Shown here one piece after another: positions 8,505 through 25,630 of a stretch of DNA of 47,508 nt. This DNA comes from Acidimicrobiia bacterium (GTDB lineage: Bacteria > Acidobacteriota > Vicinamibacteria > Vicinamibacterales > CAVVIG01). Position 1 is the stretch's first letter, and each line of letters opens with the position of its first letter. The notes below the pieces were generated by a model that saw nothing but the letters and a program-made list of their open reading frames with translations, did no database searches and had not been told where the DNA came from. Position numbers and translations under genes: made by a program. Where the stretch lies: positions 1-47,508 of the forward strand of contig VFZL01000033.1 of assembly GCA_016871175.1 (NCBI GenBank). The letters are read 5' to 3'.

Positions 8505-10661
8505 CTAACGTCCAACGATCAACGACCACTCCAGGTTCTTCTGGATTTCCTGCTTGTCTCGCCACACAGGATGCAGCGCCTTGGCGGCCATCAACGGAAG
8601 CTGGTCCCCCAGGTGCGGCGACCCGGGCTGGCTCGAGTTGCCGTAGCCGAGCGTGCAGCGAGCCTGCTGCCTGGGGCCAAACTCCACGGCGCAAACGATG
8701 GTCTCCCCGCTAGTGGCGTAGAGACGATGTCCTTCGCGGCGCGTGAAGGCCACCGTCCGGAAGAGGCCAGACGAGCCCGCGCCGCCGTTGCCGGGAACGT
8801 CCACGTTGCCACTGGCGAAACGGTAGACGTCGCCCCACTTGACGTCCAGCGCACCGTACCGCTTCACGCACTCGTCCGCCGCCCGGGCGAGAGCCGCGAC
8901 CGCGGCATCCGGATCGTTCAACCCGTGCGCAGACTCCAGCGGCCGCGCCGGATCGTACGGCACGCGCAGCTTGGCGGCGATGCCGCCAGGCCCGGTTAGA
9001 TGCTCCTGGACCCAGAGTTCGAAGAGCACGCCGCCCCGGCTGTCAGCTTCAGTCAGCCGGTCCCACCGCTCGAGCACCCGAGCTGCCTCTGTTCGTCCTC
9101 CTGCGGCCTTCAGCAGATCCGGCAGCACTTTGTCCGCGAGCTCCATGCGCGTCGAGTGCTTTTTCGCAATGAGCTGCTCGTAGCTGATCTTCGAATCCTC
9201 GGTAATCATCCGGAGCGATCGCAGCGTCCGCATCTGCGGCAGCGCCTGCCCGGTGGGCGCCACGTAAGGCGCGTACTTCGTCCGGTCGATCTGCGGGATC
9301 GTGGCAAGCCAGGGTGGTTCGTTCGCGTTCTGATTGAAGCCGCTCGGCGGATCAATCGATTTCGGCAACTCGTCGAACGCCAGGTAGTCGGTCCACATCG
9401 TGTCCGAGGTATCGCCGGGCACGAGTTGATTCCAGTAGTCGTAGTCGCGGCCGCTCCGTTTGGGAATCAGTCCGTTGAACACGAACAGCAAGTGTCCCTG
9501 GGCGTCGGCGTAGTTCGCGTGCCACATGGGGACCGACATGAGCCGCAACGCGTCCTTGAACTGGTCGAGGGTTTCCGCTTCGCCCATGCGGAACCACTGC
9601 TCGAGCATGCGCGGGCGATCGAGACCGGCCACACGCATCGCGACCGTGAGTCCGTCGCGGTCGTGGACGACGGGCCCATGCACCGACCGGCGGACCTCGA
9701 CCGTTTCTTCTTTGAACGAGCCGTTGGGCTGTCGAACCTTGAGCGCTTTGGTGGCGCGTTCGAACGCTCGCCACTGACCGTCGTAGAGGTACCGGTTGGC
9801 CTTCGTGGTCAGTTTGAAGAAGTCGACCGTGTCGATGGTGTTGACGGTGCGTCCCCAACCCGACTTCCGGTTGAACCCGACGACCGGCGTGGGGAAGCCA
9901 ATCTGCGGCGCGCCGTAGAGGTCGTAGCCGGGGCCGACCAGGTGCATCTCCATGTAGCGGTAGAACGTGTCGCCCCAAGCCAGATGCGGATTGATGAGCA
10001 ACATCGCGTGACCGCTGGCTGAGCGCGATGGCCCGATCGTCCAGGTGTTCGAGCCGGCTCTCAGTTCCTGCGCCTCGGTCGTCTCGGCGCGCGCCGTGCG
10101 CTCGGCGGTACCGCGCTGCGCCGCGCGCACCTCACGCTCCATGCGCTCCTGGGACCCCATGTAGCCGAAGTGCACGGCACGCAGCGAGTGACCCACGACG
10201 TCGACGCCCGTGATCGGGAGGACGCGCCGAAACTCGGCGCCGGCCGAGGGGTGGTCAGTCGCGTAGTCGTTGATGCCGGCTGCAAACGCGTCAACATAGC
10301 GACGGAAGGTTGGATCCTGTACGTCGTACCACTGACGCGCCCGATCGGGGACTTCGTTCAACTGGACCCAGCGGTCCAACCCGGCATAGGCGGCGCCCCA
10401 GTACTCGGCAGCTCGACCGCGAGACTCGCCGTACAGTCTGAGGAGCAGGTTCGCCTGTGCGTGCATCTGCGCCCAGCCGTTGGCGTAGAACATCGCCTCG
10501 CGGTCCGGTGCGAAGATATGCGGGACGCCGTACCGGTCCCACAGGATCTCCGCCCGACCCGCCGCCGACAGCCGCGCGCCCGTCGTTGTCCCAACGGCGA
10601 CTCCCAGGAGGGCGGCGATACCTGCCGCGCGCGCCCACGACCACGTGCTACCACTTCGCAT
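8505..10661 (-). CDS. Penicillin acylase family protein (exported Ntn-hydrolase)
   Basis: A 718-residue exported enzyme from the ATG at 10661, preceded seven bases away by GGAGGG. The signal peptide spans roughly residues 1-35. The family is made as a precursor that cleaves itself before a catalytic Ser. Here this is Ser204 in AGSNTWTIGP, with the required Gly in front, followed by LLINPHLAW. The ~200-residue alpha part contains WDRYGVPHI and YANGWAQMHAQANL, both typical. Relatives hydrolyse penicillin G, acyl-homoserine lactones, cyclic lipopeptides or other amides; the substrate cannot be told from sequence. It lies at the edge of the exported-redox island, divergent from the NHL protein. 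Confidence 0.9.
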   Translation of the reverse strand: MRSGSTWSWARAAGIAALLGVAVGTTTGARLSAAGRAEILWDRYGVPHIFAPDREAMFYANGWAQMHAQANLLLRLYGESRGRAAEYWGAAYAGLDRWVQLNEVPDRARQWYDVQDPTFRRYVDAFAAGINDYATDHPSAGAEFRRVLPITGVDVVGHSLRAVHFGYMGSQERMEREVRAAQRGTAERTARAETTEAQELRAGSNTWTIGPSRSASGHAMLLINPHLAWGDTFYRYMEMHLVGPGYDLYGAPQIGFPTPVVGFNRKSGWGRTVNTIDTVDFFKLTTKANRYLYDGQWRAFERATKALKVRQPNGSFKEETVEVRRSVHGPVVHDRDGLTVAMRVAGLDRPRMLEQWFRMGEAETLDQFKDALRLMSVPMWHANYADAQGHLLFVFNGLIPKRSGRDYDYWNQLVPGDTSDTMWTDYLAFDELPKSIDPPSGFNQNANEPPWLATIPQIDRTKYAPYVAPTGQALPQMRTLRSLRMITEDSKISYEQLIAKKHSTRMELADKVLPDLLKAAGGRTEAARVLERWDRLTEADSRGGVLFELWVQEHLTGPGGIAAKLRVPYDPARPLESAHGLNDPDAAVAALARAADECVKRYGALDVKWGDVYRFASGNVDVPGNGGAGSSGLFRTVAFTRREGHRLYATSGETIVCAVEFGPRQQARCTLGYGNSSQPGSPHLGDQLPLMAAKALHPVWRDKQEIQKNLEWSLIVGR

Positions 10662-10788
10662 GATGCGTCCCTCCACGCGAGAATGCGGTTCGCGACGCCC
10701 AGCATAGCGGAAACGCTCCTCGCTGCGCGATCAATCCGGACTTGATTGCTCTGGTCACAGGGTGGACAATTTCCCATAGAGGTGTCTG

Positions 10789-11940
10789 ATGGTGCGATCT
10801 CGCCTTCTTCCTGCCACGGTCTTGGCACTCGTCTTCGGCAGTGCTGCGTTCGTCACGCTGACGTCGGTTGATCTCATTGCGCAGCGCGGCGCTTCCGGTC
10901 CGCCGGAGCACGCCAAGGTCACGCCGATTAACAACCTGCCGAATCCATTTGAAACGATTCGAAACTTCGGCCCGTTGCCGACTGGTCGCAGGTGGGGTTC
11001 GGTCAGCGCGATCCACGTGGACATCGACGGCAAGTCGATCTGGGCCGGTGATCGCTGTGGGACCAACTCGTGCGCGGGGTCCGACGTCGATCCAATCGTC
11101 AAACTCGACGCGACCGGGAAGGTCGTCAAGATGTTCGGCGCGGGTCAGATCATCTGGCCTCACGGCATGGATGTCGACAAGCAGGGCAACGTGTGGGTGG
11201 TCGACGCTCGAGTCGCCACCGCGGACGAGCTGAAGAAGTTCCCCAACGCCGCGGGCAAAGGGAACACGGTGCTCAAGTTCAGCCCGGAAGGCAAGTTGCT
11301 GATGACGCTCGGCACGGCTGGCAAGGCCGGCAACCCCGAGCAGGGCGCGTTCACGGAACCCAACGACGTGCTCATCGCGCCAGACGGCAGCATCTTCGTC
11401 GCCGAAGCACACAACGCACAATTCCTCGACGCGCCAGGACCCGAGGCAATCGGACGGATCTCGAAGTTCACGCCCCAGGGCAAGTTCATCAAGAGCTGGG
11501 GATCCTGGGGATACGGGCCGAGTCAGTTCCGCGGGCCGCATTCGTTCGCGATGGACTCTCGAGGGCGCCTCTTCGTGGCCGATCGGGGCAATCGCCGCAT
11601 TCAGATCTTCGACCAAGAGGGCAAGCTGCTCGACACGTGGTATCAGTTCAGCCGGATCAGCGGGCTGTATATCGACAGGAACGACGTGCTGTACGCCATC
11701 GATTCCGAATCCGACGACAACTACAATCCTGGATGGCGCAAGGGCCTGCGCGTGGGAAGCGCCAAGACGGGTGAGGTGTGGTACTTCACGCCCGAGCACG
11801 TCTCGAAGCAGCCGTCGGGCATGGGCGGGTACGGATCGATGGGCGAAGGCGTGACGGCAGACGCGCAGGGCAATGTGTTCGCCGGCGAGGTCGGTCCGAT
11901 CCAAGGTGTCACGAAGTTTGCGCTGAAACTCAAGCGCTAG
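10789..11940 (+). CDS. Exported six-bladed beta-propeller (NHL repeat) protein
   Basis: A 383-residue protein with a signal peptide over about residues 1-32. Its body is made of NHL-type blades: VDKQGNVWVVDA near 125-136, PDGSIFVAEAHNAQFLD near 198-214, and the especially clear MDSRGRLFVADRGNRRIQIF near 251-270. The fold resembles the propeller of peptidylglycine amidating lyase and secreted scaffold proteins. A Cys pair (CGTNSC) could form a disulphide. AGAGG stands about eight bases before the ATG. The stop is nine bases from the next start, so the two genes form an operon. Function is unknown; ligand binding or a lyase role are the two leading options. Confidence 0.85.
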   Translation: MVRSRLLPATVLALVFGSAAFVTLTSVDLIAQRGASGPPEHAKVTPINNLPNPFETIRNFGPLPTGRRWGSVSAIHVDIDGKSIWAGDRCGTNSCAGSDVDPIVKLDATGKVVKMFGAGQIIWPHGMDVDKQGNVWVVDARVATADELKKFPNAAGKGNTVLKFSPEGKLLMTLGTAGKAGNPEQGAFTEPNDVLIAPDGSIFVAEAHNAQFLDAPGPEAIGRISKFTPQGKFIKSWGSWGYGPSQFRGPHSFAMDSRGRLFVADRGNRRIQIFDQEGKLLDTWYQFSRISGLYIDRNDVLYAIDSESDDNYNPGWRKGLRVGSAKTGEVWYFTPEHVSKQPSGMGGYGSMGEGVTADAQGNVFAGEVGPIQGVTKFALKLKR

Positions 11941-11949
11941 AGGAACACC

Positions 11950-13017
11950 TTGAAGGCGCGACGCACGTCTCTCGCGATCGGTCTGATTGTTGCGCTCGTC
12001 GGCGCCGGTGGCGTGGCCGTCTCCGGCCAGGGCGAGGGCACGCGCTTCAACGCGCACCCCTCCACGCAGGAGGCGTCGCGTCTCATCACGCTCGACATGC
12101 TGAAGAAGTGGGAAAAGGAGCTCTCGAACTGGGGCCGTTGGGGCAAGGAGGATCAGCGCGGCCTGCTGAATCTCATCACGCCTGAGAAGACCAAGAAGGC
12201 GCTCGCGCTCGTCAAGGACGCGAAGACCGTCACGCTGCAGATCAATCCGATCAAGAAGACCGGAAGCGATACGGGCGGCTTTGGCGAGAACGTGCACCGC
12301 ATGGCGCGAGTCGACCCGAAGACCGGGGCGATTCTGGGTGCGCTCGACATCATTCAGCTGTCGATTCACGACGGTCTGAGCTCACATCTCGATGCCCTCT
12401 GCCACTATCAGGGACCGATCGGCCGTAAGCCGGGTGAGCCGGCGGTCAGCTACAACGGCTTCCCATTCACGTTGACGGCGGCCGGGTGCATCGAGTCCGC
12501 GGCCGATCGCATGGGCCCGGGCTACATCACGCGCGGCATCTTGGTGGACATGCCGTTGCTCAAGAACGTGAAGTGGCTCGAGCCGAGCACGCCCATCTAT
12601 GTCGAAGACCTCGAGGCCTGGGAGAGGTTCGCTGGCGTCAAGATTGGGGCGGGGGATGCGCTCATTATTCGTACGGGCCGTTGGGCGAAGCGTGCGGCCG
12701 AAGGGCCGTGGCCGTACGGGCAGGCGGGGGCCGGACTGCACGCCTCCGTGCTGCCGTGGCTCAAGAGCCGTGACATCTCACTCCTTGGCGGCGATGCGGT
12801 CAACGACGTCCAGCCGTCGGGTGTGGCCGGCATCAACCGGCCGATTCACCAGCTCACCCAGGTGAACATGGGCCTGCCGATTTCAGACGACATCTGGACC
12901 GAAGACGCTGCGCAAGAGGCCCAGCGTCTGAAGCGCTGGGAGTTCATGCTGACGCTGCACATCTATCAGATTCAGGGCGGCACAGCCTCGCCCTTCAACG
13001 GGCTGGCCACGTTCTAA
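11950..13017 (+). CDS. Exported cyclase family protein (kynurenine formamidase-like)
   Basis: A 355-residue protein, starting at TTG 11950, with a signal peptide over about residues 1-26 (ending near VAVSGQ). The cyclase family holds metal-dependent hydrolases, including bacterial arylformamidase, and cyclases of aromatic polyketides. The family's metal site is recognisable as SSHLDALCHYQG near 145-156, close to the canonical HxGTHxDAPxH but with Ser replacing the first His region and Leu-Cys replacing Ala-Pro. The later motif GAGDALIIRTG and the C-terminal LLGGDAVNDVQPSG also fit. Tight linkage to the propeller gene suggests one exported pathway. The substrate is unknown; a lactone- or amide-opening hydrolase is a reasonable guess. 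Confidence 0.85.
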   Translation: MKARRTSLAIGLIVALVGAGGVAVSGQGEGTRFNAHPSTQEASRLITLDMLKKWEKELSNWGRWGKEDQRGLLNLITPEKTKKALALVKDAKTVTLQINPIKKTGSDTGGFGENVHRMARVDPKTGAILGALDIIQLSIHDGLSSHLDALCHYQGPIGRKPGEPAVSYNGFPFTLTAAGCIESAADRMGPGYITRGILVDMPLLKNVKWLEPSTPIYVEDLEAWERFAGVKIGAGDALIIRTGRWAKRAAEGPWPYGQAGAGLHASVLPWLKSRDISLLGGDAVNDVQPSGVAGINRPIHQLTQVNMGLPISDDIWTEDAAQEAQRLKRWEFMLTLHIYQIQGGTASPFNGLATF

Positions 13018-13330
13018 CGCGAACCGCCGCCAGCAGTCGCAGGAGCCGCATAGTCCTTCGTAAAGCCGTTGCGGCCGTTCGTGACGTTGAACGAGCCATC
13101 TCGCCGGGCGGAGACCTTGATCCAGTGCGCCTGACCGTGGTGGGCAGGAGGTGGAGGCGTCGACGGTCCAGGCGCTGGTGCCGGCATGGCTGCAATCGGC
13201 ATCGCGGAGGTCGGTTCATCCGTCGTGTTCGCGATGAAGAGGCCGGGCACGGTGTACTCCTGGCCGCTCAGCAGCGAGAAGTGGAGTTGCCAGACATCCT
13301 CGAGGCCCGGCGACGAGTCCACGCGTCTGC
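13014..13330 (-). pseudogene. C-terminal remnant of an MBL-fold (ComEC-like) hydrolase
   Basis: About 105 codons on the minus strand keep a recognisable C-terminus: SSPGLEDVWQLHFSLLSGQ, then FIANTTDEP, a Pro-rich linker, and HWIKVSARRDGSFNVTNGRN followed by a few residues and TAG. I recognise this as the tail of acidobacterial metallo-beta-lactamase-fold proteins annotated as hydrolase/competence protein. Upstream of about 13330 the open frame carries no metal-binding HxHxDH or other conserved sequence, so the catalytic domain is gone. The tail overlaps the cyclase stop by four bases. The stretch 13331-13555 that follows has no gene I can support and holds only the leader of the PSD1 operon. 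Confidence 0.6.
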
Positions 13331-13555
13331 CCGCCTTTGCCCGACGAGTGCTGGCGAGAGACCCATCATATAGGGCCCGAGGGACCAAACGGCGAGCGGA
13401 GCTGTCCCTGTTTCTGGGGACGAAAGCTCGCGAACGCTGTATTAGCTGCATTAAGGGTGCATGAGTCATGTTGATCGGGGCGAGAGGCAGTGGTAAGGTG
13501 ACGCTGCTTGGCGTGGTGTCGCTCATCGGGCCGTGGCTCGAGGGCGGGGAGCCTG

Positions 13556-15979
13556 ATGGCCTTTGGTCCCCTGCGACAACTTGGCGTTCCGCTGGCCGCG
13601 ATCGCACTGGTTCTTGGCGCTCGGCTGAGCGGCGCATCGGTTGGCGCTCCCGACACACCAGCCCAAGCGCAGTCCGCTCGCGCGACCCTCGACCGGTACT
13701 GCGTTAGCTGCCACAATCAGCAGCGCAAGACCGCCTCGCTCGCGCTCGACACCCTGGACGTCGCGAAGACGTCGTCGGCCACCGCCACCTGGGAGAAAGT
13801 GGTACGCAAGCTGCGCGGCGGCTCGATGCCCCCGTCTGGTCTCCCGCGGCCGGACCGCGCCACGTACGACAGCCTGATTGGCTGGCTGGAGTCCGACCTG
13901 GACGCGGCAGCCGCTGCACGGCCTGACCCTGGCCGAACCGAGCCCTTCCATCGGCTCAACCGCACCGAGTACCGCAACGTCATCCGTGATCTGCTCGCGC
14001 TCGACGTCGACGTCTCGGCGCTCCTTCCGAGCGACGACGCGAGCTACGGGTTCGACAATATGGCGGGTGTGCTGAAGATGTCGCCGACGCTGCTCGAGCG
14101 GTATCTGGCGGCCGCGCAACGCGTGAGCCGACTGGCCGTCGGCAGCCCGCCTTCGATGCCCAACGTCGACACGTTCCGCGTGCCCGAAGATCTGCCGCAG
14201 GACGAGCGCATCGACGGATTGCCCTTCGGGACGCGAGGGGGCACGCTGGTTCGCCACACCTTCCCGGTCGATGCGACGTACGACATTCGCGTGCGCCTCT
14301 CTCGACTGGGTCTGAGCGGCGGCGCCACTGAGGACATCCCGCGCTTCGCCGAGTCGCACGATCTCGACGTGATGCTCGATGGCGTCCGTATCAAGACGTT
14401 CACGTTAGCGGGCGAAACACTCCCGGCGGGCGTTCGGCAGGATGCCTACCAACAGAATCGCATCACCCTTGACGCGGACTGGAACGTTCGGTTACGGGTC
14501 ACGGCCGGACCGCACGAAGTCGGCGTCGCCTTCGTGAAGAAGTCTTCGGCACTCAATGAAACCGTGCGCCTGCCGTTCCTGCGCCCGTACGCGGGCGCCG
14601 GCGGTGACACTCGTTACCAGCCCTACTTGAGCCGCGTCACGGTCACCGGACCGATCGAGACTGGAGCGGCGGTGGACACGCCAAGTCGTCGTGCGGTGTT
14701 CGTCTGCCGTCCGCGACGCCCGCACGACACCGATCCGTGCGCCCGTCGAATCCTGTCGTCGCTCGCGCGACGTGCCTACCGACGACCGACGACGGAGGAA
14801 GATGTCGCACCCCTGATGGAGTTCTTCCGTCGCGGGCACGCGGCGGGCGGCTTCGACATCGGCATCGAGCAGGCCCTTGGCCGATTGCTCATCAGCCCGC
14901 ACTTCCTCTATCGAGTTGAGCGAGATCCGTCGAGAGTGCCGCCGGCCACACCGTATCGCATCAGCGAGCTCGAGCTTGCCTCACGTCTGTCGTTCTTCCT
15001 CTGGAGCAGCTTGCCGGACGAGGCTCTGATGGCGGCGGCGACGGCGAACCGGTTGCACGAGCCGGCGGTGCTCGAGGCGCTGGTCAAGCGGATGTTGGCG
15101 GATCCGAAGTCCGAGGCGCTCGTCCAGAACTTCGCCTCGCAGTGGCTGTATTTGCGCAACGTTCCGACGTTGTCACCGGACCTCGACGTGTATCCGGATT
15201 TCGACGAGAGCCTGCGTCAGGCGTTTGGTCGCGAGACCGAGCTGTTCGTTGGCAGCATCGTTCGCGAGGACCGCCGTGTGCTGGAGCTGCTCACCGCCGA
15301 CTACACGTTCGTCAACGAGCGTCTGGCGAGGCACTATGGGTGGCCGAACATCAAAGGCAGCCATTTTCGGCGCGTGAATGTGGAGGACCCGGGGCGCCGC
15401 GGTCTTCTCGGACACGGCAGCCTGCTGGCGGTCACCGCGTACCCGCATCGCACGTCGCCGGTTCTTCGCGGCAAATGGATCCTCGAGAACCTGCTCGGTA
15501 CGCCGCCGCCACCGCCACCTCCGAATGTGCCTGACCTCAAGGATCGGAACGCTGAGGGGAAGGTGCTGACGATGCGCGACCGCATGGGCCAGCATCGGGC
15601 GAATCCAGTGTGCGCGAGTTGCCATGCGCAGATGGATCCGCCGGGGTTCTCCCTCGAGACGTTCGACGCCATCGGCCGCGCACGGCGTGTGGACGAGCAG
15701 TTCGTCCCGATCGACGCATCCGGCGTCCTGCCCGACGGCTCGAAGTTCGACGGCCCGAACGGACTGCGCGAGGCGCTCCTTGCGCAGCCCGAGCGCGTGA
15801 TCACGACCTTCACGGAGAAGCTTCTGACATACGCGCTCGGTCGCGGGCTCGAGTCCACCGACATGCCGGCCGTTCGCCGCATCAGTCGGGAGTCCGCAGT
15901 TTCAGACTATCGCTTCTCGACCATCGTGTTGGGCATCGTCAACAGCGTACCGTTCCAGATGAGGAGGGCGGCCGAGTGA
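13556..15979 (+). CDS. PSD1-type cytochrome c protein, DUF1587/1595/1592/1588/1585 architecture
   Basis: An 807-residue exported protein from the ATG at 13556 (GGGGAG upstream). Domains in order: signal peptide (~1-30); a planctomycete-type cytochrome (PSD1) with the heme motif CVSCH at 49-53; DUF1587 around HRLNRTEYRNVIRDLLALD; a carbohydrate-binding-like beta domain; DUF1595 around RRAYRRPTTEEDV; DUF1592 around ISPHFLYRVERD and LSFFLWSSLPDEAL; DUF1588 around TSPVLRGKWILENLLGT; a second CxxCH (CASCH) in ANPVCASCHAQMDPPGF; and DUF1585 around LLTYALGRGLESTDMPA. It is a complete copy. The biochemical role of this family is not established; its hemes point to periplasmic or surface electron transfer. 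It is translationally coupled to the DUF1552 gene. Confidence 0.93.
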   Translation: MAFGPLRQLGVPLAAIALVLGARLSGASVGAPDTPAQAQSARATLDRYCVSCHNQQRKTASLALDTLDVAKTSSATATWEKVVRKLRGGSMPPSGLPRPDRATYDSLIGWLESDLDAAAAARPDPGRTEPFHRLNRTEYRNVIRDLLALDVDVSALLPSDDASYGFDNMAGVLKMSPTLLERYLAAAQRVSRLAVGSPPSMPNVDTFRVPEDLPQDERIDGLPFGTRGGTLVRHTFPVDATYDIRVRLSRLGLSGGATEDIPRFAESHDLDVMLDGVRIKTFTLAGETLPAGVRQDAYQQNRITLDADWNVRLRVTAGPHEVGVAFVKKSSALNETVRLPFLRPYAGAGGDTRYQPYLSRVTVTGPIETGAAVDTPSRRAVFVCRPRRPHDTDPCARRILSSLARRAYRRPTTEEDVAPLMEFFRRGHAAGGFDIGIEQALGRLLISPHFLYRVERDPSRVPPATPYRISELELASRLSFFLWSSLPDEALMAAATANRLHEPAVLEALVKRMLADPKSEALVQNFASQWLYLRNVPTLSPDLDVYPDFDESLRQAFGRETELFVGSIVREDRRVLELLTADYTFVNERLARHYGWPNIKGSHFRRVNVEDPGRRGLLGHGSLLAVTAYPHRTSPVLRGKWILENLLGTPPPPPPPNVPDLKDRNAEGKVLTMRDRMGQHRANPVCASCHAQMDPPGFSLETFDAIGRARRVDEQFVPIDASGVLPDGSKFDGPNGLREALLAQPERVITTFTEKLLTYALGRGLESTDMPAVRRISRESAVSDYRFSTIVLGIVNSVPFQMRRAAE

Positions 15980-18772: not shown

Positions 18773-18808
18773 GAAGCCAAGGGCTACTGAGCGAGGGGGC
18801 TGGGGCAT

Positions 18809-19273
18809 ATGGACACGATACGCGCACGGAAGCGCCAATGGCTCTGGAGGTTCGCCGCGCTGGGCTTGATCGTCGGCTCAACAAGCCTGGGGTTGGCTCA
18901 GGGGCCGGCTCCGGCGCCGCCGCCCAAAGTGGAAACCACCGTCTACGACATGAGCAAGCTGGTTGCGCCGCCCACGCTGGCGCCGAACGAACTCGAAGGC
19001 AAGCGGCTCTTCGTTCAGCGGTGTGCGCTGTGCCATGACCTGCTCGGTCAGCCGGCCTCGACGACGGTCGGACCGTGGGTGGACGGCACGACGGTCAAGG
19101 CTCGAGGTGAGGCTGCGATTCGGCTGAAGATCATGGACGGATCGCGTCGCATGCCAGGCTGGAAGCACACCTTCGACGCGCAGCAAGTGGACGCCGTCAT
19201 TGCGTACATGAAGACCATGACGCCTGAAATGAGGCCAAAGCCTGGTGGGCCCGTCACTGGTCCCATCGAGTAG
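18809..19273 (+). CDS. Exported monoheme c-type cytochrome
   Basis: A 154-residue protein with a signal peptide over about 1-30, a Pro/Ala-rich linker, and one heme site, RCALCH (Cys72, Cys75, His76). A likely distal Met lies in SRRMPGW near residue 114. The C-terminal part has the cytochrome c helix VDAVIAYMKTM. It is small and soluble once exported, and probably a periplasmic electron carrier. The gap from the ankyrin gene is 36 bases and the next gene follows after 59, so it likely belongs to the same transcript. It could carry electrons from the PSD1 or Vgb-like protein to the respiratory chain. Confidence 0.9.
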   Translation: MDTIRARKRQWLWRFAALGLIVGSTSLGLAQGPAPAPPPKVETTVYDMSKLVAPPTLAPNELEGKRLFVQRCALCHDLLGQPASTTVGPWVDGTTVKARGEAAIRLKIMDGSRRMPGWKHTFDAQQVDAVIAYMKTMTPEMRPKPGGPVTGPIE

Positions 19274-19332
19274 GCGGTCAAGCCCGTAACGGGTAGGCAG
19301 GGAAGCGGGTCGGGATCACACAGGAGTCGGTG

Positions 19333-21174
19333 ATGCGAAGCATACGAATCGTTGGGCTTGGAGTGATCGTGCTGATGGCCAGCCTCGCGCGGGTGTACAC
19401 GGCTCCGCCTGTAGACGGCACGGGCGGCCCGATGTTGATGGGCACTGTTCGGTCGGCGACCGGTGAGGCACTGGGCGGTGTGCCGGTATCGGCGCGGGCT
19501 GTCGGCGGCACCGTGACGCGATCCGTCTACACCGACGAGCGTGGAGAGTATGTCTTCCCCGCGTTCGAGGAACCGTTTGCGCCTGGCGCCTACAAGGTGT
19601 GGGCCCAGGCGGTCGGGTTCGCGCGCACCGACGCGGACGTCGACTTGTCGCGGCCAGGCAAGAAAGATCTCGTGCTCAATACGGTCAAGGACTTCAGTAA
19701 TCAACTGTCCGGTTCCGAGTGGCTCGAAGCGCTGCCTAGTGAGTCCCACGAAGACAGGCGCATGAAGGAAATCTTCCGCGTGAACTGCACGGAGTGCCAT
19801 CAGCCTGGACTCGTGCTGCAGAACCGGCTCGACGAGCAAGGTTGGCTTGCGATGATCGAGGTGATGGAACGGGCGACGTATCACGGATGGCCCGGTCCGA
19901 ACGCACCTCTGCGCAGCACCATCACCTACCACAAGCAGGAGCTGGCGAAATGGCTCGCGAAAGTCCGGGGCCCGGAGCCCTATCCGCTCAAGTTCAAGCT
20001 CCACCCGCGTCCGAGTGGCGAAGCGGCGCGCGTCGTCGTGACCGAGTACGACATCCCTACGTCGGTCGGCAAGCAAGAGAGGACCATGCAGGACGGCAGC
20101 GTGTGGACGGACGGCATCATGTCCGGCTTGCACGGCACCGGCGGCATTCACGACGTGCAGATTGACGACGACGGCAACGCGTGGTTGACGGACTCCGTGA
20201 ACAACGACCACCGCACGATTGTGAAGATCGACGTCAAGACCGGAGCGGTCAAGGGCTTCAAGGTGGTTGCACCGAACGGGCGTGCTTCCGCCTCCCACGG
20301 GATTGGGCGCGACAAGAACGGGATCATGTGGTTCGACACTGGCGGCATGTTGGCGCGGGTCGACCCAAAGACTGAGCAGTTCGAGTTCTATCGCACGCCG
20401 TTTGGCTCCCCGACGACCACGTCCGGACAGATCGATATCGCACCCAACGGGAACATCTGGATGTCAGCACGCCGGGGCGCGTTGATGTTCAACCAACAGA
20501 CCAAGAAGTTCACCTTCTACCAGGACAAGACCATTGGCGACGGTCAGACGTACGGCGCGACCGCGGACGCCAATGGTAACGGCTGGTGGACGCAGTTCAA
20601 TATGGACAACGTTGTCCACGCGGACGTCAAAACTGGCGAGGTGTTCGAGTTCCCGATGCGTCCGCCCGACAAGATGGAAGTCGTCCTGACACCGGCGGAC
20701 CGTGAGTTCTACCACAACATCGGCGGCGACCGATTCTCCGGGACGTTCGCTCGACCGGGGTCGCAGGCGCCGCGTCGTCTTTCGACCGACAAGAACGGGA
20801 CGGGCGTCTGGGTAGCCAACTGGTGGGGCGTGAACCTGGCCCGCATCGATGCGAAGACGAAGAAGGTCACGTACCACAAGGTTCCGCTCAACGCGAACCC
20901 GTACAACACCGTCATCGACAAGAACCACATCGTCTGGACGAATCTGACCTCTGATGATGCGGTGGGCCGGTTCGATCCGAAGACGGAGCAGTGGACCATC
21001 TACAAGCTCCCCATCGTCGGGGCCGAGCTGCGCCACATCGCCTTCGACGATGCCCGTGGAGATGTGTGGGTGCCGTATCGCGAGGCGGACCGGGCTGCGC
21101 GCCTGCAGTTCCGCACGCAAGCGCAGATTGACGCGCTCAAGAAGGCGGTCGGCACGCAGGCCGTCGCACGATAG
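19333..21174 (+). CDS. Exported carboxypeptidase-regulatory-like / heme-motif / Vgb-type propeller protein
   Basis: A 613-residue protein from the ATG at 19333 (AGGAG six bases upstream; the GTG just before it is less well placed). Order of parts: signal peptide (~1-24); a carboxypeptidase regulatory-like Ig domain at ~33-115 (GTVRSATGEALGGVPVSA, DERGEYVFP); a short cytochrome-like segment with one CxxCH, NCTECHQPGL (Cys152, Cys155, His156); and a seven-bladed propeller like virginiamycin B lyase at ~245-600 with blades such as DDDGNAWLTDS, DKNGIMWFDTGG, APNGNIWMSARRGA and DKNGTGVWVANWWG. Vgb opens cyclic streptogramins by lyase chemistry, but many relatives have other or unknown roles. The heme motif in front of the propeller is the unusual part. 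Confidence 0.88.
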   Translation: MRSIRIVGLGVIVLMASLARVYTAPPVDGTGGPMLMGTVRSATGEALGGVPVSARAVGGTVTRSVYTDERGEYVFPAFEEPFAPGAYKVWAQAVGFARTDADVDLSRPGKKDLVLNTVKDFSNQLSGSEWLEALPSESHEDRRMKEIFRVNCTECHQPGLVLQNRLDEQGWLAMIEVMERATYHGWPGPNAPLRSTITYHKQELAKWLAKVRGPEPYPLKFKLHPRPSGEAARVVVTEYDIPTSVGKQERTMQDGSVWTDGIMSGLHGTGGIHDVQIDDDGNAWLTDSVNNDHRTIVKIDVKTGAVKGFKVVAPNGRASASHGIGRDKNGIMWFDTGGMLARVDPKTEQFEFYRTPFGSPTTTSGQIDIAPNGNIWMSARRGALMFNQQTKKFTFYQDKTIGDGQTYGATADANGNGWWTQFNMDNVVHADVKTGEVFEFPMRPPDKMEVVLTPADREFYHNIGGDRFSGTFARPGSQAPRRLSTDKNGTGVWVANWWGVNLARIDAKTKKVTYHKVPLNANPYNTVIDKNHIVWTNLTSDDAVGRFDPKTEQWTIYKLPIVGAELRHIAFDDARGDVWVPYREADRAARLQFRTQAQIDALKKAVGTQAVAR

Positions 21175-21324
21175 GTCGCAAAGGCACGAACCGCGGGTCA
21201 CACGAGCGACCGGCGAAGCCGGCTCCGAGGCTGTCCGTGTCTCGTGGCGCCGCTTCGCAGCGCACGCGACGTTCTGAGTGACAAGATGGCCTTCGTGCCG
21301 CGTGTCCTCGTGGCGGACAGCCCA

Positions 21325-23121
21325 CTACGACGTGTGGTGCACGGGCGTCATGCCGTAGACGGGGGTATCGATGCCTTCCAGTCGCGCTTTGAGCTGCAGC
21401 GCAAGGAACGAAGAGTAGTAGCGGGATTGCGCCAGATTGCCGCCGTGAAACCAGAGTCCGGGCTGGTGAGTGGGCTTCCACATGTTCCGCAGCTCTCCCT
21501 CCCACGGTCCGGGATCCTTGGTCGTGTTGGAGCCGAGGCCCCAGCACTTGCCGACTCTATCGGCGACTTCCTGCGAGATGAGCTGGGCCGCCCAGCCATT
21601 CATCGAGCCGTAGCCGGTGGCGTAGACGATGAGGTCCGCTGGAAGCTCGGTGCCGTCGCTCAGCACGGCTGAACGCGCCTTTAGCTCCTTCACTTCGACG
21701 CCGCTCCGGAGCTTGATTCGGCCGTCGGCGACCAGCTCGGAGGCGCCGACATCAATGTAGTATCCGGATCCGCGACGCAGATACTTCATGAACAGCCCTG
21801 AGTCGTCGTCCCCAAAGTCGAGGAGGAATCCCACGTTCCGGAGCCGACCGTAGAGCGCCGCGTCCCGTTTGGCCATCTCCGCATACGCCGGCTTCTGGAG
21901 CTCCGCCATGATGCGATACGGGATGGACGCGAAGATGATGTCGGCCTTGTTGGCCGTGATGCCGACTCGAACGGCCGACTCCGAATAGAGCCCATCGAGC
22001 ACGAGCTCGAGCATCAACTCGGAACGCGCCACCATCGTCGACGAGCGCTGGAGCATCGTCACAGCCGCGCCATGCTCCCAGAGGTCGGCGCAGATGTCGT
22101 GCGTGGAGTTGTTCGATCCCACCACGACGCACTGCTGGCCTCGGAAGCCTTCGCCGCCGGGATGTCGGCTGGAGTGGTGCTGCACGCCTTGGAATTGCTC
22201 GGCGCCCGGGACCTCAGGGACGTTCGGCACGCCGGACATGCCGGTGGCGAGCACGAGCTGTTTCGGCCTCAGCACCACCGTCTCGCTCGCGCGGTCGACT
22301 GTCACCACCCACTCCTGATGCGCCTCATCGTAGGAGGCTTGTTGGCACGTCGTGGAGCCCCAGTAGTCGAGCTCCATCACCCGCGCGTACATCTCCAGCC
22401 AGTCGGCGATCTTGTCCTTCGGGGAGAAGACCGGCCAGCTCTCCGGGAACGGGAGGTAGGGGAGGTGGTCGTGCCAAACCGGATCGTGCAGGCACAACGA
22501 CTTGTACCGTTTGCGCCAGGCATCCCCCGGTCGCTCGTGCTTGTCGATGACGATGGTCGGGACGTCGAGCTGCTTCAGCCGGGCGGCGAGCATGATGCCG
22601 GCTTGGCCACCCCCGACGATGAGGCAGTACGGCTGGCGTGTGCGTCCGAGGTTGGACAGCTCCTCTGTGCGTCGGTCGAGCCACGTCTGCCGGTCGCGAA
22701 ACGCCCCATGGTCAACACCGCGCGGCCGCGAATCGCCGCGCCGCTCCTCGTGGCCCTTCAGCTCCGTTGCGGCGGTCAGCAGGGTCCAGCACTTTCGGTC
22801 GCGAAGGCGAACGTACCCGTTCCCGCGGGTGCGCTCGGTCTCCAGGGTGAGAAACGCCTCCGTGACGCCGTCGGCACCCGCCGGTTCGCCTTCAACAGAC
22901 CATGAGCCTGGTTTGACCGCCGCGAGCCTAGCGGCCAGCATCGATTCGATGCTGGGTCTTCCCTCGCACGTGACGATGTTCCACGTGAACGCGATGAGAT
23001 CGCGCCAGTAGCTCTCCTCGTGAAAGAGCGCCATCGTTGCCGCGACGTCGCCTCGCGCAAGCGACGCGGAAAATGTGTCCAGCCAGTCAGTGATCTCCCG
23101 GGCGCGCTCGCTCTGTGCCAT
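21325..23121 (-). CDS. Flavin-containing monooxygenase with N-terminal SnoaL-like domain
   Basis: A 598-residue protein with no signal peptide, so cytoplasmic. Residues ~1-115 resemble a SnoaL/NTF2-like domain (ITDWLDTFSASLARGDV, TMALFHEESYWRDL). The rest is an FMO/Baeyer-Villiger-type flavoprotein: the FAD site VGGGQAGIMLA at 169-179, WRKRYKSLCLHDPV near 202-215, the linker FQGVQHHS at 310-317 similar to the FxGxxxHxxxY signature, and a second dinucleotide site VVVGSNNSTHD near 332-342 for NADPH. It would insert one oxygen atom into a small nucleophilic or carbonyl substrate. Its stop-to-start distance from the PQQ dehydrogenase is only four bases, so the two are one operon. Confidence 0.9.
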   Translation of the reverse strand: MAQSERAREITDWLDTFSASLARGDVAATMALFHEESYWRDLIAFTWNIVTCEGRPSIESMLAARLAAVKPGSWSVEGEPAGADGVTEAFLTLETERTRGNGYVRLRDRKCWTLLTAATELKGHEERRGDSRPRGVDHGAFRDRQTWLDRRTEELSNLGRTRQPYCLIVGGGQAGIMLAARLKQLDVPTIVIDKHERPGDAWRKRYKSLCLHDPVWHDHLPYLPFPESWPVFSPKDKIADWLEMYARVMELDYWGSTTCQQASYDEAHQEWVVTVDRASETVVLRPKQLVLATGMSGVPNVPEVPGAEQFQGVQHHSSRHPGGEGFRGQQCVVVGSNNSTHDICADLWEHGAAVTMLQRSSTMVARSELMLELVLDGLYSESAVRVGITANKADIIFASIPYRIMAELQKPAYAEMAKRDAALYGRLRNVGFLLDFGDDDSGLFMKYLRRGSGYYIDVGASELVADGRIKLRSGVEVKELKARSAVLSDGTELPADLIVYATGYGSMNGWAAQLISQEVADRVGKCWGLGSNTTKDPGPWEGELRNMWKPTHQPGLWFHGGNLAQSRYYSSFLALQLKARLEGIDTPVYGMTPVHHTS

Positions 23122-23125
23122 GTGC

Positions 23126-24799
23126 TCAGTTCTGACCCGTTCCCCGTGGCACGTCGCCGAGAGCCCACGCGGTCAGCGTCGTCCCGGACGGGACCAGGAT
23201 GTGCTGGCGTCCGTCCACCATGTAGGTGATGGGCGAAGTCCCGTGAAGGTTGGCGCCCATCTGATAGCGCCAGAGCTGCTTGCCGTTCCGTGAGTCGAGC
23301 GCGAAGATATTGCCCTCGTTGTCGCCGCTGAACAGCAGGTTCGAGGCGGTGGTGAGAATACCGGCGCGTGACGGGGTGGGCAGCTTGAATTCCCACTTCA
23401 GCTCGACCGTCTTCGGGTCCAAGGCGCGGATCGCGCCGGACGGACGGTTATCCGCGCGATTCACGAGCTGCTGTGCCCCGCCCGTGAAGCGCTGGCCGGG
23501 CACAAACGGCGTCTCATAGCCGAAGAACGTCGCACACGCCTCCCGCGCGGTGACGTAGAACACCTGCGTTCGCGGATCGAAGGACGGCTGCCAGAAGTTG
23601 GTCGCGCCGAGCGCGTCGGGACATGTGAACTCGCCCTTCTCGTCAGGCGTTTGACCCGGAAGGAGAATCGGACGGCCCTGCGCGTCGATCTCCTTCGCCC
23701 AGGTTGTGTTGACGTACGTCTTTGCGACGAGCAACCGGCCGTTGGTGCGATCCAGCGTATAGAAGAAGCCGTTGCGGTTGGCGAACATCACGGTCTTGCG
23801 GGCCTGCCCGTTGATGGTGAGGTCGGCCAGGATTGGCACCTGCGTCGAGTCGTAGTCATGAACGTCGTGTGGCGTGAACTGATAATGCCATCGCAACTTA
23901 CCGCTGTCCGCGTCGACTGCCACGATCGAATCGCTGTACAGGTTGTCGCCTTCCCGACTGCCCGAGTGATAGTCCGGACCCGGGTTGCCGGTCCCGTAGT
24001 AGAGCAGGTTCAGCTCGGGGTCGTACGCGCCGGTCACCCAGATCCCGGCACCGCCCGTCTTCCACGAATCACCCGACCAGGTGTTGTGCCCGGGTTCGCC
24101 GGGACCGGGGATCGTGTAGAAGCGCCACGCGCGCTTGCCGGTATTGGCGTCGTAGGCCTCGAGGAAACCGCGGATGCCGTACTCCCCCCCGGCGACTCCG
24201 ACGATGACCTTGTCCTTGGCGATGATGGGCGCGATCGTGGCCGCGTAGCCGGTCCTGTAGTCCTCGAGTGTGGCGTCCCAGACGACCGCGCCCGTTTTCG
24301 CGTCGAGCGCCAGCAAGTGGGCATCGAGGGTCGTCATGAAGAGCTTGTCCCCGAGGATCCCGAAGCCGCGGTTGACGAGGCCGCAACAGGCGGTAAGGCC
24401 TGTGAGCGGAAGCTCACGTCGATAGCGCCAGATCTGTCGCCCGCTGCGGGCGTCGAGGGCCCACGCGACGTTCAGCGGACCTGTGACGTACAGGACGTTG
24501 TCCCGCAGCAGCGTCGTGGTCTCGAAGTTGCCGACGGTGGCGGTCTGGAACGTCCACTGCGGCTGGAGGCGATTGACGTTGTCAGGCGTGATCTGTGTGA
24601 GCGGGCTGAATCGGTGGTTGGCGAAGTTGCCGCCGAAGGTGAGCCATTTGCTCCCGTCCTCCTTCAATCCCTCGAGGATCTCCTGGAAGGTGACGAGCCC
24701 GCCGGCAGCGCCGCTCGACTGCTGCGCGAGGACCGTCGCCGCGCCCACAAACGAGAGCAACGCGGCAACCTGGACGAGACGGATGATGGCCTGTCGCAT
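23126..24799 (-). CDS. PQQ-dependent alcohol dehydrogenase (methanol/ethanol family)
   Basis: A 557-residue exported quinoprotein with a signal peptide over ~1-25. The eight-bladed propeller has tryptophan-docking repeats such as DARSGRQIWRY, DAKTGAVVWD and DSRNGKQLWRY. Active-site features seen: the vicinal Cys pair TACCG (138-139), metal-ligand Glu206 in GGEYG, Asn272 in GTGNPGP, and catalytic Asp315 in HDVHDYDST. Asp317, two residues on, is the residue that marks lanthanide-dependent members; calcium enzymes usually have Ala, Ser or Thr there. It oxidises an alcohol or aldehyde in the periplasm and passes electrons to a cytochrome c, most likely the product of the gene 24 bases upstream. 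Confidence 0.93.
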   Translation of the reverse strand: MRQAIIRLVQVAALLSFVGAATVLAQQSSGAAGGLVTFQEILEGLKEDGSKWLTFGGNFANHRFSPLTQITPDNVNRLQPQWTFQTATVGNFETTTLLRDNVLYVTGPLNVAWALDARSGRQIWRYRRELPLTGLTACCGLVNRGFGILGDKLFMTTLDAHLLALDAKTGAVVWDATLEDYRTGYAATIAPIIAKDKVIVGVAGGEYGIRGFLEAYDANTGKRAWRFYTIPGPGEPGHNTWSGDSWKTGGAGIWVTGAYDPELNLLYYGTGNPGPDYHSGSREGDNLYSDSIVAVDADSGKLRWHYQFTPHDVHDYDSTQVPILADLTINGQARKTVMFANRNGFFYTLDRTNGRLLVAKTYVNTTWAKEIDAQGRPILLPGQTPDEKGEFTCPDALGATNFWQPSFDPRTQVFYVTAREACATFFGYETPFVPGQRFTGGAQQLVNRADNRPSGAIRALDPKTVELKWEFKLPTPSRAGILTTASNLLFSGDNEGNIFALDSRNGKQLWRYQMGANLHGTSPITYMVDGRQHILVPSGTTLTAWALGDVPRGTGQN

Positions 24800-24823
24800 G
24801 ATGGCTAGCTCCCAAAAACCGAG

Positions 24824-25630
24824 TTACTTGACTGCCGGATCGAATCCCTTGAGCGTCGCCAGGTAGGCGAGGAGATCGTTCAGGTCGTTCTCGCTGAGGC
24901 GCTCGGGTCCAAACGTCGGCATGGCAGACTGTTTCCCCTTCTCGACCGCGCGTACATCCGACCGCAGGTAGCCCTGGATCCGTTCGCGGCTGTCCATGAT
25001 CTGGACGGAGTACATGTCCTCGTTCTTCGTCACACCGCTGATGGTCTGGCCGTCCTTCGTGGTGACCGTCACCGGTTCGAACCCGGACAGCGACTCCTCG
25101 ACGGCACCTCGGATGCGGCGCACCAGCACCGGGCGAGCGCGTGAGACCCCGACGCGTGAGAGATCTGGTCCCAGCCGACCGCCGCGGCCGTTCGCGCGAT
25201 GGCAGCTCTGACACTGAACTCGAAATACGCGCTCGCCGTTCTGTGCGTTGCCCTTGGCACCGGCCTCCGGGGTTTGGGCCGCGAGTGTTCGGAGGTACGC
25301 GAGGATCTTCCAGACTTCGTCATCTGGGGTCCGCTCGCCGACGGCGGGCATCTCGGTTCCGATGACGCCGGTCCGAAGCGTGTTGAACAAGCCCTCGTCA
25401 CTTCGGCCCGAGGTCCAAACCTGCGTGAGATCGGGCCCGCGGACCCCTTTGGCGTCGATCCCGTGGCAATCCGCGCACCGGGAGCGGTAGAGCCCCATAC
25501 CCGTCTTGATCGCTCCCTGATCGCCATCGTACGGATTCTTCTTGCCCGCTTGCGCATGCACGTGCGGCGCGGCCGCCAGCAGCATCGCGATCGCGATGGT
25601 GACGGACGTCAAGATTCGCAATGTCAGCAT
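24824..25630 (-). CDS. Exported diheme cytochrome c
   Basis: A 268-residue protein from the ATG at 25630, with GGGAG six bases upstream; the longer open frame is not needed. The signal peptide covers ~1-26 (ends HVHAQA). Two heme sites are seen: RCADCH (Cys52, Cys55, His56) and QCQSCH (Cys140, Cys143, His144). The second part, with GRLGPDLSRVG, VTTKDGQTISGVTKNEDMYS and a final cytochrome helix LNDLLAYLATL, matches the heme-binding domain described from Pirellula and Verrucomicrobium proteins. It precedes the PQQ dehydrogenase in the same operon and is the obvious electron acceptor for it. Confidence 0.92.
   Translation of the reverse strand: MLTLRILTSVTIAIAMLLAAAPHVHAQAGKKNPYDGDQGAIKTGMGLYRSRCADCHGIDAKGVRGPDLTQVWTSGRSDEGLFNTLRTGVIGTEMPAVGERTPDDEVWKILAYLRTLAAQTPEAGAKGNAQNGERVFRVQCQSCHRANGRGGRLGPDLSRVGVSRARPVLVRRIRGAVEESLSGFEPVTVTTKDGQTISGVTKNEDMYSVQIMDSRERIQGYLRSDVRAVEKGKQSAMPTFGPERLSENDLNDLLAYLATLKGFDPAVK

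What the first reader, a model, noticed from the sequence alone, without database searches (positions are those of the whole stretch)
8505..25630. A 17-kb island of exported redox and hydrolytic proteins, candidate undescribed extracellular oxidation system
Acylase, NHL propeller, cyclase, PSD1 multidomain cytochrome, DUF1552 Tat protein, ankyrin protein, monoheme cytochrome, heme-motif Vgb-like propeller, FMO, PQQ dehydrogenase and diheme cytochrome lie side by side. Eight or more appear exported and four carry CxxCH. No transporter or regulator intervenes. The layout suggests stepwise attack on an amide- or ester-linked aromatic or polyketide-like compound outside the cell, with electrons gathered by cytochromes. 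The substrate is speculation.
Basis: inference. Interest (0 to 1): 0.7.

Follow-up and report, generated by a model that had tools for sequence, protein, structure and literature searches.

The report
Repeated exported cytochrome-ankyrin gene trio
The stretch is not one 11-gene machine but a mosaic: two resident genes, an acylase and a 12.8-kb block built around a three-gene exported redox unit of unknown function that this bacterium carries about 33 times.

Summary
They lie in three transcription units, and the only held congener has NHL–cyclase joined directly to tRNA-Leu–MBOAT: the 12.8 kb between (PSD1 to diheme cytochrome) is absent there. Sub-sets are conserved. (1) PSD1–DUF1552–ankyrin: 33 PSD1–DUF1552 pairs in this genome, 31 with ankyrin alongside; 30 of 37 listed ankyrin frames flank such a pair; 43 of 45 informative same-subfamily pairs in other genomes; same order in Novosphingobium. 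(2) Cytochrome + Vgb-like: adjacent or fused in 23 of 23 informative fetched loci. The cyclase is a recurrent, not fixed, neighbour: 5 of 6 copies here, 0 of 40 closest and 4 of 20 next relatives elsewhere. DUF1552 folds like sulfatases/alkaline phosphatases. A shorter PSD–DUF1552 pair sits beside steroid-catabolism genes in sphingomonad plasmids; no glycoside hydrolase is among the 25 commonest families near 32 of the trios. Best guess: a multi-copy periplasmic heme-dependent oxidation module for small hydrophobic organics. The pair is in print as function unknown; my searches found no printed trio.

The parts
8505..10661 (-). Exported penicillin-amidase-family (Ntn) acylase; non-syntenic slot, probably unrelated to the trio
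   Evidence: PF01804 421.9 bits; PvdQ model 232 bits, cut-off 950; congener has another gene here
10789..11940 (+). Exported NHL propeller; backbone gene shared with congener
   Evidence: PF01436; 749 bits to the window query in L075; synteny
11950..13017 (+). PF04199 putative cyclase/hydrolase; backbone gene
   Evidence: 54.6 bits, cut-off 23.1; 84% identical in congener
13020..25793 (.). 12.8-kb block absent from the congener, ending at tRNA-Leu
   Evidence: blastn synteny break and resumption
13556..15979 (+). PSD1-type diheme protein (cyt c / DUF1587 / jelly roll / DUF1595 / DUF1592 / DUF1588 / DUF1585); trio member 1
   Evidence: one of 33 copies; model pLDDT 88.1
15976..17334 (+). DUF1552 (HXXSHH) twin-arginine protein, sulfatase/alkaline-phosphatase-like fold; trio member 2, 4-nt overlap with member 1
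   Evidence: PF07586 313.8 bits; VIA Z 17.1
17327..18772 (+). Exported ankyrin-repeat protein; trio member 3, 8-nt overlap with member 2
   Evidence: PF12796 276 bits; adjacency 31 of 33
18809..19273 (+). Monoheme cytochrome c, partner of the Vgb-like protein
   Evidence: PF13442; adjacent to or fused with Vgb-like in 23 of 23 informative fetched loci
19333..21174 (+). CarboxypepD_reg + CxxCH + Vgb-like propeller
   Evidence: PF24684 44.7 bits, under its cut-off of 50; relatives of any degree in 21 of 120 order genomes
21325..23121 (-). FMO-like flavoprotein with N-terminal extension, no signal peptide seen
   Evidence: PF13738, PF00743
23126..24799 (-). PQQ alcohol dehydrogenase (methanol/ethanol family)
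   Evidence: TIGR03075 563.8 bits, cut-off 480.05; alignment to 1kv9
24824..25630 (-). Diheme cytochrome c, probable partner of the PQQ dehydrogenase
   Evidence: PF13442 two stretches; TIGR02603 94.8 bits
25794..25882 (+). tRNA-Leu(CAA) at the right end of the block; inverted in the congener

Best explanation
The 17-kb stretch is a mosaic. Its core is one copy of a three-gene periplasmic redox unit, PSD1-DUF1552-ankyrin ('the trio'), here inside a 12.8-kb accessory block with a cytochrome-Vgb-like pair and an FMO / PQQ-dehydrogenase / diheme-cytochrome unit, placed between resident NHL-cyclase genes and a tRNA-Leu. SHOWN: the trio's conservation and copy number, the cytochrome-Vgb fusions, the block's absence from the congener, the predicted fold class of DUF1552. 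INFERRED: PSD1 binds the substrate (jelly-roll domain) and carries electrons through its two hemes; DUF1552, a sulfatase/alkaline-phosphatase-fold protein with invariant histidines, provides a metal site that works on the substrate; the ankyrin protein scaffolds the two in the periplasm; electrons leave through small c-type cytochromes to the respiratory chain. Each of the ~33 copies would serve a different small, probably hydrophobic or polycyclic, organic substrate, with its own neighbours. The block was more likely gained in this lineage than lost in the congener.
For: Trio: 33 PSD1-DUF1552 pairs, 31 with ankyrin within 500 bp (frame to frame) in three layouts; 30 of 37 listed ankyrin frames flank such a pair (counted by hand; binomial 1e-33 for 2-kb neighbourhoods); 43 of 45 informative same-subfamily pairs elsewhere; same order and overlaps in Novosphingobium sp. 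KACC 22771. Cytochrome-Vgb: 23 of 23, 9 of them fused. Block absent from congener; PSD1's nearest relatives are outside the family, while cyclase (84%) and MBOAT (74%) are closest in the congener. Fold: DUF1552 Z 17.1, rmsd 3.8-4.0 A over 267-270 residues, Foldseek E 4e-6. Substrate: KshA, a BphC-type dioxygenase, and genes annotated FadE30 and hydroxysteroid dehydrogenase near sphingomonad PSD-DUF1552-cytochrome genes; 133 neighbours of 32 trios are led by PQQ dehydrogenases, cytochromes, metallo-beta-lactamase fold, MFS transporters, amidohydrolases and polyketide-cyclase/lipid-binding proteins, with no glycoside-hydrolase family in the top 25 of 148.
Against: The sphingomonad steroid-linked pairs are a distant, shorter subfamily without ankyrin (PSD1 160-175 bits), and one of them (L158) has neither cytochrome nor steroid genes named beside it. 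The jelly roll in PSD1 resembles CBM35/36 (Z about 8, weak), and the DUF1587-bearing Cbp2D of Cellvibrio is tied to cellulose (PMC8981238), both pointing to glycans. No activity is known for any member. Ankyrin is missing at 2 of 33 pairs here, at 2 of 45 same-subfamily pairs elsewhere (both just above my 550-bit line, L135 and L137) and at 5 of 5 below it. Loss in the congener is not excluded; only one congener is held. Export, heme and metal were not measured.
Confidence: 0.5

Rival explanations
1. Glycan-oxidation module: PSD1 is a CBM-bearing electron-transfer hub like Cellvibrio Cbp2D, feeding or draining an oxidative polysaccharide enzyme; DUF1552 is a sulfatase-like desulfating or dephosphorylating partner.
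For: Jelly roll 199-370 matches CBM35/36; DUF1552 fold closest to carbohydrate sulfatases; Cbp2D has DUF1587, CBM2 and cytochrome domains, and loss of the Cbp2D and Cbp2E genes slows growth on cellulose (PMC8981238, passages); He et al. suggest carbohydrates for PSCyt genes with CBMs (PMC5615132, passages).
Against: No glycoside-hydrolase family among the 25 commonest Pfam families of 133 neighbours of the trios (the other 123 families are not shown, so single ones may exist); steroid clusters in sphingomonads.
Confidence: 0.3
2. One reading: one 11-gene extracellular oxidation pathway acting stepwise on an amide- or ester-linked compound.
For: Physical adjacency; 10 of 11 look exported; paralogous locus L057 (contig 51) holds cyclase, ankyrin, PSD1, DUF1552, diheme cytochrome and PQQ dehydrogenase within about 15 kb; 5 of 6 cyclases of this genome lie within 10 kb of a PSD1 (p 2e-4); elsewhere a cyclase of the next-nearest kind lies near a PSD1 in 4 of 20 loci, twice directly upstream on the same strand (L177, L178), and in loci fetched for other reasons (L123, L127, L131, L146).
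Against: Synteny border inside it; three transcription units; 0 of 40 loci of the nearest cyclase relatives show a PSD1, though 10 of the 40 are contigs under 12 kb; mapped relatives of the window's PSD1 lack cytochrome-Vgb; PQQ dehydrogenases over the cut-off near PSD1 2 of 8, as by chance.
Confidence: 0.1
3. Passive hot spot: exported redox genes gather beside a tRNA by repeated insertion, with no shared function beyond the trio and the two cytochrome pairs.
For: tRNA-Leu at the block edge; different neighbours at each of the trios; Vgb-linked PSD1s are scattered on the tree (at least 4 changes forced by starred branches).
Against: None of the block's scanned proteins is an integrase and there are no att-like repeats (best 11 bp); Vgb-like lies within 14 kb of a PSD1 in 9 of 22 informative loci, against 15-20% in my rough hand estimate from copy density (one search gives tails of 0.002 and 0.014 for 9 of 21; loci are not independent).
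Confidence: 0.35

Closest known systems
PSCyt/PSD ('Planctomycete-specific') cytochrome genes of Verrucomicrobia and Planctomycetes (He et al. 2017, PMC5615132; Rhodopirellula, PMC2754498; passages of both)
   Same: Same PSD and PSCyt1/PSCyt3 domain set; many copies per genome; PSCyt3 genes usually next to one family of unknown genes (the search listing counts DUF1552 three times in that record, the main text as held has none)
   Different: Here a third gene, exported ankyrin, is nearly fixed beside the pair; the one Verrucomicrobia contig mapped (L012) has the pair without ankyrin
Cellvibrio japonicus Cbp2D (PMC8981238, passages)
   Same: DUF1587 region and c-type cytochrome domains in a secreted multidomain protein
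   Different: Cbp2D carries CBM2 and a YceI-like quinone domain; window PSD1 shows neither by Pfam
Sphingobium plasmid clusters PSD-DUF1552 with cytochrome c' and/or cytochrome b561 (NZ_CP020539.1, AP027342.1, AP027331.1)
   Same: PSD3/PSD5/PSD4/PSCyt3/PSD2 protein followed at once by DUF1552
   Different: Shorter PSD protein (536-564 aa), one heme motif, no ankyrin; steroid genes around
Sulfatase / alkaline phosphatase superfamily
   Same: Predicted fold of DUF1552
   Different: About 10% identity; canonical nucleophile not recognisable by eye; invariant His-rich HxxSHH segment
PQQ alcohol dehydrogenases, methanol/ethanol family, and NCBI's 'acido-empty-quinoprotein'
   Same: TIGR03075 over cut-off; TIGR04528 534.6 bits
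   Different: Under the TIGR04528 cut-off of 650; residues aligned with the active-site Glu, Asn and Asp of 1kv9 are kept (roles recalled)

Membership tests
PSCyt3/PSD group with DUF1552 neighbour | PSD3, PSD5, PSD4, PSCyt3, PSD2 in this order, with cytochrome motif(s) | tested here: met
   All five over cut-off, plus PSCyt1; 2 CxxCH
PSCyt3/PSD group with DUF1552 neighbour | DUF1552 gene next door | tested here: met
   Window; all 33 copies of the genome
PSCyt3/PSD group with DUF1552 neighbour | Heme actually bound; redox activity | not testable with these tools
   Needs expression
PSD1-DUF1552-ankyrin trio (proposed here) | Ankyrin gene within 1.5 kb of the pair | tested here: met
   31 of 33 own; 43 of 45 informative pairs with PSD1 at 550 bits or more elsewhere, 4 uninformative, 6 rows set aside by my distance rule; 0 of 5 under 550 bits
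Sulfatase/alkaline phosphatase superfamily (DUF1552) | Superfamily fold | tested here: met
   Z 17.1, rmsd 3.8-4.0 over 267-270 residues; 422 of 812 chains at Z 8 or more
Sulfatase/alkaline phosphatase superfamily (DUF1552) | Canonical nucleophile and paired-metal ligands | tested here: inconclusive
   Invariant His111 and near-invariant Asn54 where I would expect nucleophile and Asp by eye (motif recalled); profile comparison with E. coli PhoA not significant
Streptogramin (virginiamycin B) lyase | Curated Vgb models | tested here: not met
   PF24684 44.7 under 50; VgbB 30.9 under 600, VgbA 26.8 under 600
PQQ alcohol dehydrogenase (TIGR03075) | Curated score | tested here: met
   563.8 over 480.05
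PQQ alcohol dehydrogenase (TIGR03075) | Cofactor made by the host (not required if PQQ is imported) | tested here: not met
   No PqqC match in G000, 96.8% complete; positive control: over cut-off in 14 of 120 order genomes. Other pqq genes not searched
PvdQ quorum-quenching acylase | Equivalog score | tested here: not met
   232.3 under 950; general penicillin-amidase family met
Cbp2D-type LPMO electron donor | CBM2 and YceI-like domain | tested here: not met
   Neither reported by Pfam at E 1e-3
Steroid-catabolic PSD-DUF1552 cluster | Steroid genes (KshA, HsaC-like) beside the pair | tested here: not met
   None among the 20 window proteins scanned; seen in sphingomonad plasmids only

The most novel reading that the evidence does not exclude
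PSD1-DUF1552-ankyrin is an undescribed class of periplasmic oxidoreductase: a diheme receptor protein plus a sulfatase-fold partner whose catalytic nucleophile was replaced by a histidine-rich metal (perhaps copper or iron) redox site, held on an ankyrin scaffold. It has radiated into some 33 paralogues in one genome to oxidise different steroid-, terpenoid- or polyketide-like natural products outside the cytoplasm, and it moves between phyla (presumed Acidobacteriota, and Pseudomonadota).
Probability: 0.2. Interest if true: 0.8.

Novelty: new variant of a known kind. Interest (0 to 1): 0.55.

Why it matters
A gene trio present some 33 times in a 4.4-Mb genome, with partners and order kept across distant genomes, is likely to be a main way in which this lineage feeds or respires, yet I found no member with a known activity. 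Naming ankyrin as a nearly fixed third partner, placing DUF1552 in the sulfatase/alkaline-phosphatase fold, and pointing to a named Novosphingobium strain with the full trio and to steroid clusters with the short pair makes the function of the PSCyt/PSD families, named in Rhodopirellula and still unassigned, directly testable.

Tried and rejected
Rejected: the minus-strand frame 10648-12369 as the NHL gene; it had no Pfam match and is antisense to the real one. Rejected: streptogramin lyase for the Vgb-like protein. Not supported: att-site integration at tRNA-Leu, no repeat over 11 bp. Not resolved: gain or loss of the block, since one congener is held and MBOAT relatives (18 of 27 family genomes with a match) are at most 45% identical outside the genus, so no outgroup junction was found. 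Not conclusive: enrichment of PQQ proteins near PSD1 (2 of 8 over cut-off; 11 of 50 in all, p 0.06). Profile comparison of DUF1552 with PhoA gave nothing usable. For PSD1 only the jelly roll (199-370) was matched in the structure searches; the helical remainder was not folded alone and stays untested. Sequence search of DUF1552 in the PDB: no match; of PSD1: one cytochrome at E 0.46.

Rescanning the 40 nearest cyclase loci with stop-to-stop frames again gave 0 of 40, but 20 further loci, taken in list order from PSD1-rich family f8, gave 4 of 20.

Literature: searches for DUF1552; DUF1592/1588/1585/1587 with ankyrin or PSD1; PSCyt/DUF1501; HXXSHH; Vicinamibacter with ankyrin; PSCyt1/DUF1549/DUF1553 listed no description of the trio; the library is open-licence PMC only. 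Papers: passages only of PMC5615132, PMC2754498, PMC12124388, PMC8981238, PMC6004670, PMC11495043 and PMC10653915; none read whole.

Counts and dropped rows: gene starts come from my own simple codon-usage caller, which found few genes in four loci (L107, L110, L124, L131); these were rescanned. In one search six PSD1 rows (L119, L123, L126, L130, L132, L133) were set aside because the partner frame lay outside my distance rule or at a region end; the 550-bit line is my choice. The ankyrin list was truncated, so 37 frames is a minimum; counted by hand. Vgb-like: one search lists 29 places at E 1e-93 or better; 24 were mapped, 23 were long enough, five were not fetched. In one search, 133 of 145 neighbour proteins of 32 trios were scanned; the 12 longest and the window's own neighbours were left out. 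The tree is the quick kind; the Verrucomicrobia row is a long branch.
Full report
WHAT IS THERE. The order is acylase (-); then seven plus-strand genes, NHL, cyclase, PSD1, DUF1552, ankyrin, monoheme cytochrome, Vgb-like; then FMO, PQQ dehydrogenase and diheme cytochrome (-); then tRNA-Leu. PSD1, DUF1552 and ankyrin overlap by 4 and 8 bases. Four proteins hold six CxxCH motifs. By eye ten of eleven have signal-like starts, DUF1552 with twin arginines; the FMO has none. G+C shows no clear step across the region.

A BORDER INSIDE THE ISLAND. The window lies in a 4.44-Mb, 85-contig genome, 96.8% complete. The one held congener, G108, is syntenic: COX15-type gene, NHL, cyclase, tRNA-Leu, MBOAT and on to window 37,811, where the fetched stretch ends, at about 70-82% nucleotide identity. 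Synteny stops at 13,019 and resumes at 25,794. PSD1 to diheme cytochrome is therefore a 12.8-kb block absent there; the acylase slot holds another gene, and tRNA-Leu is inverted. Cyclase (84%) and MBOAT (74%) are closest in the congener, but its best PSD1 is 55% and its best Vgb-like 36%. The best PSD1 matches by score (up to 64%) lie in another family of the order, and the quick tree puts the window copy beside one from a third family (support 93, under the tool's 95 line). This favours gain in the window's lineage; loss in G108 is not excluded.

THE TRIO. PSD2 hits 33 places in the genome. All 33 PSD1 genes have DUF1552 beside them, and 31 have an ankyrin frame within 500 bp: downstream on the same strand, upstream on the same strand, or upstream divergent. 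Some ankyrin genes stand between two pairs and count for both. One copy (contig 20) is split by frame breaks. The two without ankyrin are a tandem on contig 9. Of 37 distinct ankyrin frames in the truncated list, 30 flank a pair (hand count); 4.7% of the genome lies within 2 kb of a PSD1, and the binomial tail is 1e-33. In other genomes, fetched by PSD1, DUF1552, Vgb-like or cyclase and never by ankyrin, 43 of 45 informative pairs with PSD1 at 550 bits or more have ankyrin; four more are cut by region ends; 0 of 5 below that line have it, the Verrucomicrobia contig L012 included. DUF1552 itself is found in 23 of 149 genomes of a phylum sample. The trio, in the same order and, with my start calls, the same overlaps, is on a megaplasmid of Novosphingobium sp. 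KACC 22771.

THE CYTOCHROME-VGB PAIR. Relatives of the Vgb-like protein, some partial, occur in 21 of 120 order genomes. Of 29 strong places, 24 were mapped; one contig is too short; in the other 23 the cytochrome is the neighbouring gene (14) or fused to it (9: eight N-terminal, one C-terminal). Several loci come from one genus, so they are not independent. A PSD1 is within 14 kb in 9 of 22 loci long enough to tell; in L018, L019/L062 and L020/L063 the order trio, other genes, cytochrome, Vgb-like on one strand is kept. These PSD1s are not close kin of the window's; the Vgb-linked label needs at least four changes on the tree. With a hand estimate of 15-20% by chance the tail is 0.002-0.014 (for 9 of 21), suggestive only.

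OTHER MEMBERS. Five of six cyclases in the genome lie within 10 kb of a PSD1, where 13.4% of the genome lies (p 2e-4). Elsewhere the picture is mixed: 0 of 40 loci of the nearest cyclase relatives (10 of them contigs under 12 kb) show a PSD1, but 4 of 20 of the next ones do, and in L177 and L178 the cyclase stands directly before PSD1-DUF1552 on the same strand; L123, L127, L131 and L146, fetched for other reasons, have one too. So the cyclase is a recurrent partner, and the block may have landed behind one. Distant NHL-type propellers (about 40-220 bits) lie near several trios (L040, L046, L055, L058, L059; L118-L120, L125, L126; L145, L147); I did not test this against background. Two of eight PQQ dehydrogenases over the cut-off lie near a PSD1, as by chance; the contig-51 locus L057 nevertheless repeats cyclase, trio, diheme cytochrome and PQQ dehydrogenase, and L133 of another genome has PQQ and diheme genes near a trio. 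One acylase match lies near a trio (L153); the FMO showed no tie.

COFACTOR PROBLEM. The PQQ dehydrogenase passes TIGR03075 and keeps the residues aligned with the active site of 1kv9 (roles recalled), yet no PqqC is found in the genome, while 14 of 120 order genomes have one over cut-off. PMC12124388 (passages) reports PqqU importers in class Vicinamibacteria without PQQ synthesis, so scavenged PQQ is a likely answer if the class is right. I did not look for PqqU.

STRUCTURE. DUF1552 (pLDDT 85.5, 47 sequences) matches sulfatases, phosphonate hydrolases, NPPs and PafA (Z 16-17) at about 10% identity. Invariant residues include histidines 111, 330, 334, 335 and 391 and cysteines 168 and 174. 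By eye the canonical nucleophile is not evident; a test against PhoA failed to align, so this is a lead. PSD1 (pLDDT 88.1) has a central jelly roll like CBM35/36 at Z about 8, which the tool warns may be a common arrangement.

WHAT IT DOES. For glycans speak the jelly roll, the sulfatase-like fold, and Cbp2D (DUF1587, CBM2 and cytochromes; loss of the Cbp2D and Cbp2E genes slows growth on cellulose; PMC8981238, passages). For small hydrophobic organics speak the sphingomonad plasmids: PSD-DUF1552 with cytochrome c' and cytochrome b561 and a TonB receptor, next to KshA, a BphC-type dioxygenase and an acyl-CoA-dehydrogenase-like flavin monooxygenase in Sphingobium herbicidovorans, and near genes annotated FadE30 and hydroxysteroid dehydrogenase in Sphingobium TomTYG65, where only the cytochrome b561 is annotated. 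PMC10653915 (passages) describes alpha-tomatine-degrading isolates of this set. Those pairs are the far subfamily without ankyrin, and another copy in TomTYG74 (L158) lacks cytochrome and named steroid genes. A census of 133 of 145 neighbours of 32 trios gives PQQ dehydrogenases (10), cytochromes (4), metallo-beta-lactamase fold (4), MFS transporters (3), amidohydrolases (3), polyketide-cyclase/lipid-binding (3) and no glycoside hydrolase among the 25 commonest of 148 families. I lean to small organics, at modest confidence.

VERDICT. The PSCyt3 gene with its unknown neighbour is in print without a function (PMC5615132, passages); six literature searches showed no description of the trio.

Noticed in passing
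L156:11479-16626 (NZ_CP117882.1): Full PSD1-DUF1552-ankyrin trio on a Novosphingobium megaplasmid, with no features there in the plasmid collection's gene table.
   Followed up: yes
L157, L162, L163: Short PSD-DUF1552 genes with cytochrome c' and/or cytochrome b561 and a TonB receptor near steroid-catabolism genes in Sphingobium plasmids.
   Followed up: partly
G000 whole genome: About 50 places match the PQQ dehydrogenase model, eight over TIGR03075's cut-off, but no PqqC was found.
   Followed up: partly
L177:5208-10219 and L178:7048-16297: Cyclase directly upstream of PSD1-DUF1552 on the same strand in two other genomes, in L178 with ankyrin after and a weak Vgb-like match before.
   Followed up: partly
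L009 / L016 (VFZH01000119.1): A contig titled Acidimicrobiia bacterium has the same length and the same matches as contig C119 of an order-mate genome (G036), so the title is probably a wrong assignment.
   Followed up: no
L036:9882-12632 (contig 20): One PSD1 copy is split into three frames: decaying gene or assembly error.
   Followed up: no
G000:C53:5738-6667: A DUF1552 gene with a high score lies on a contig without any listed PSD2 match.
   Followed up: no
window:25794-25882 and L075:7164-7251: tRNA-Leu(CAA) is inverted relative to its neighbours between the two congeners.
   Followed up: partly
L092, L093: In two genomes of another genus of the family the cyclase lies divergently beside a close relative of the window's PQQ dehydrogenase (616-624 bits).
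   Followed up: no
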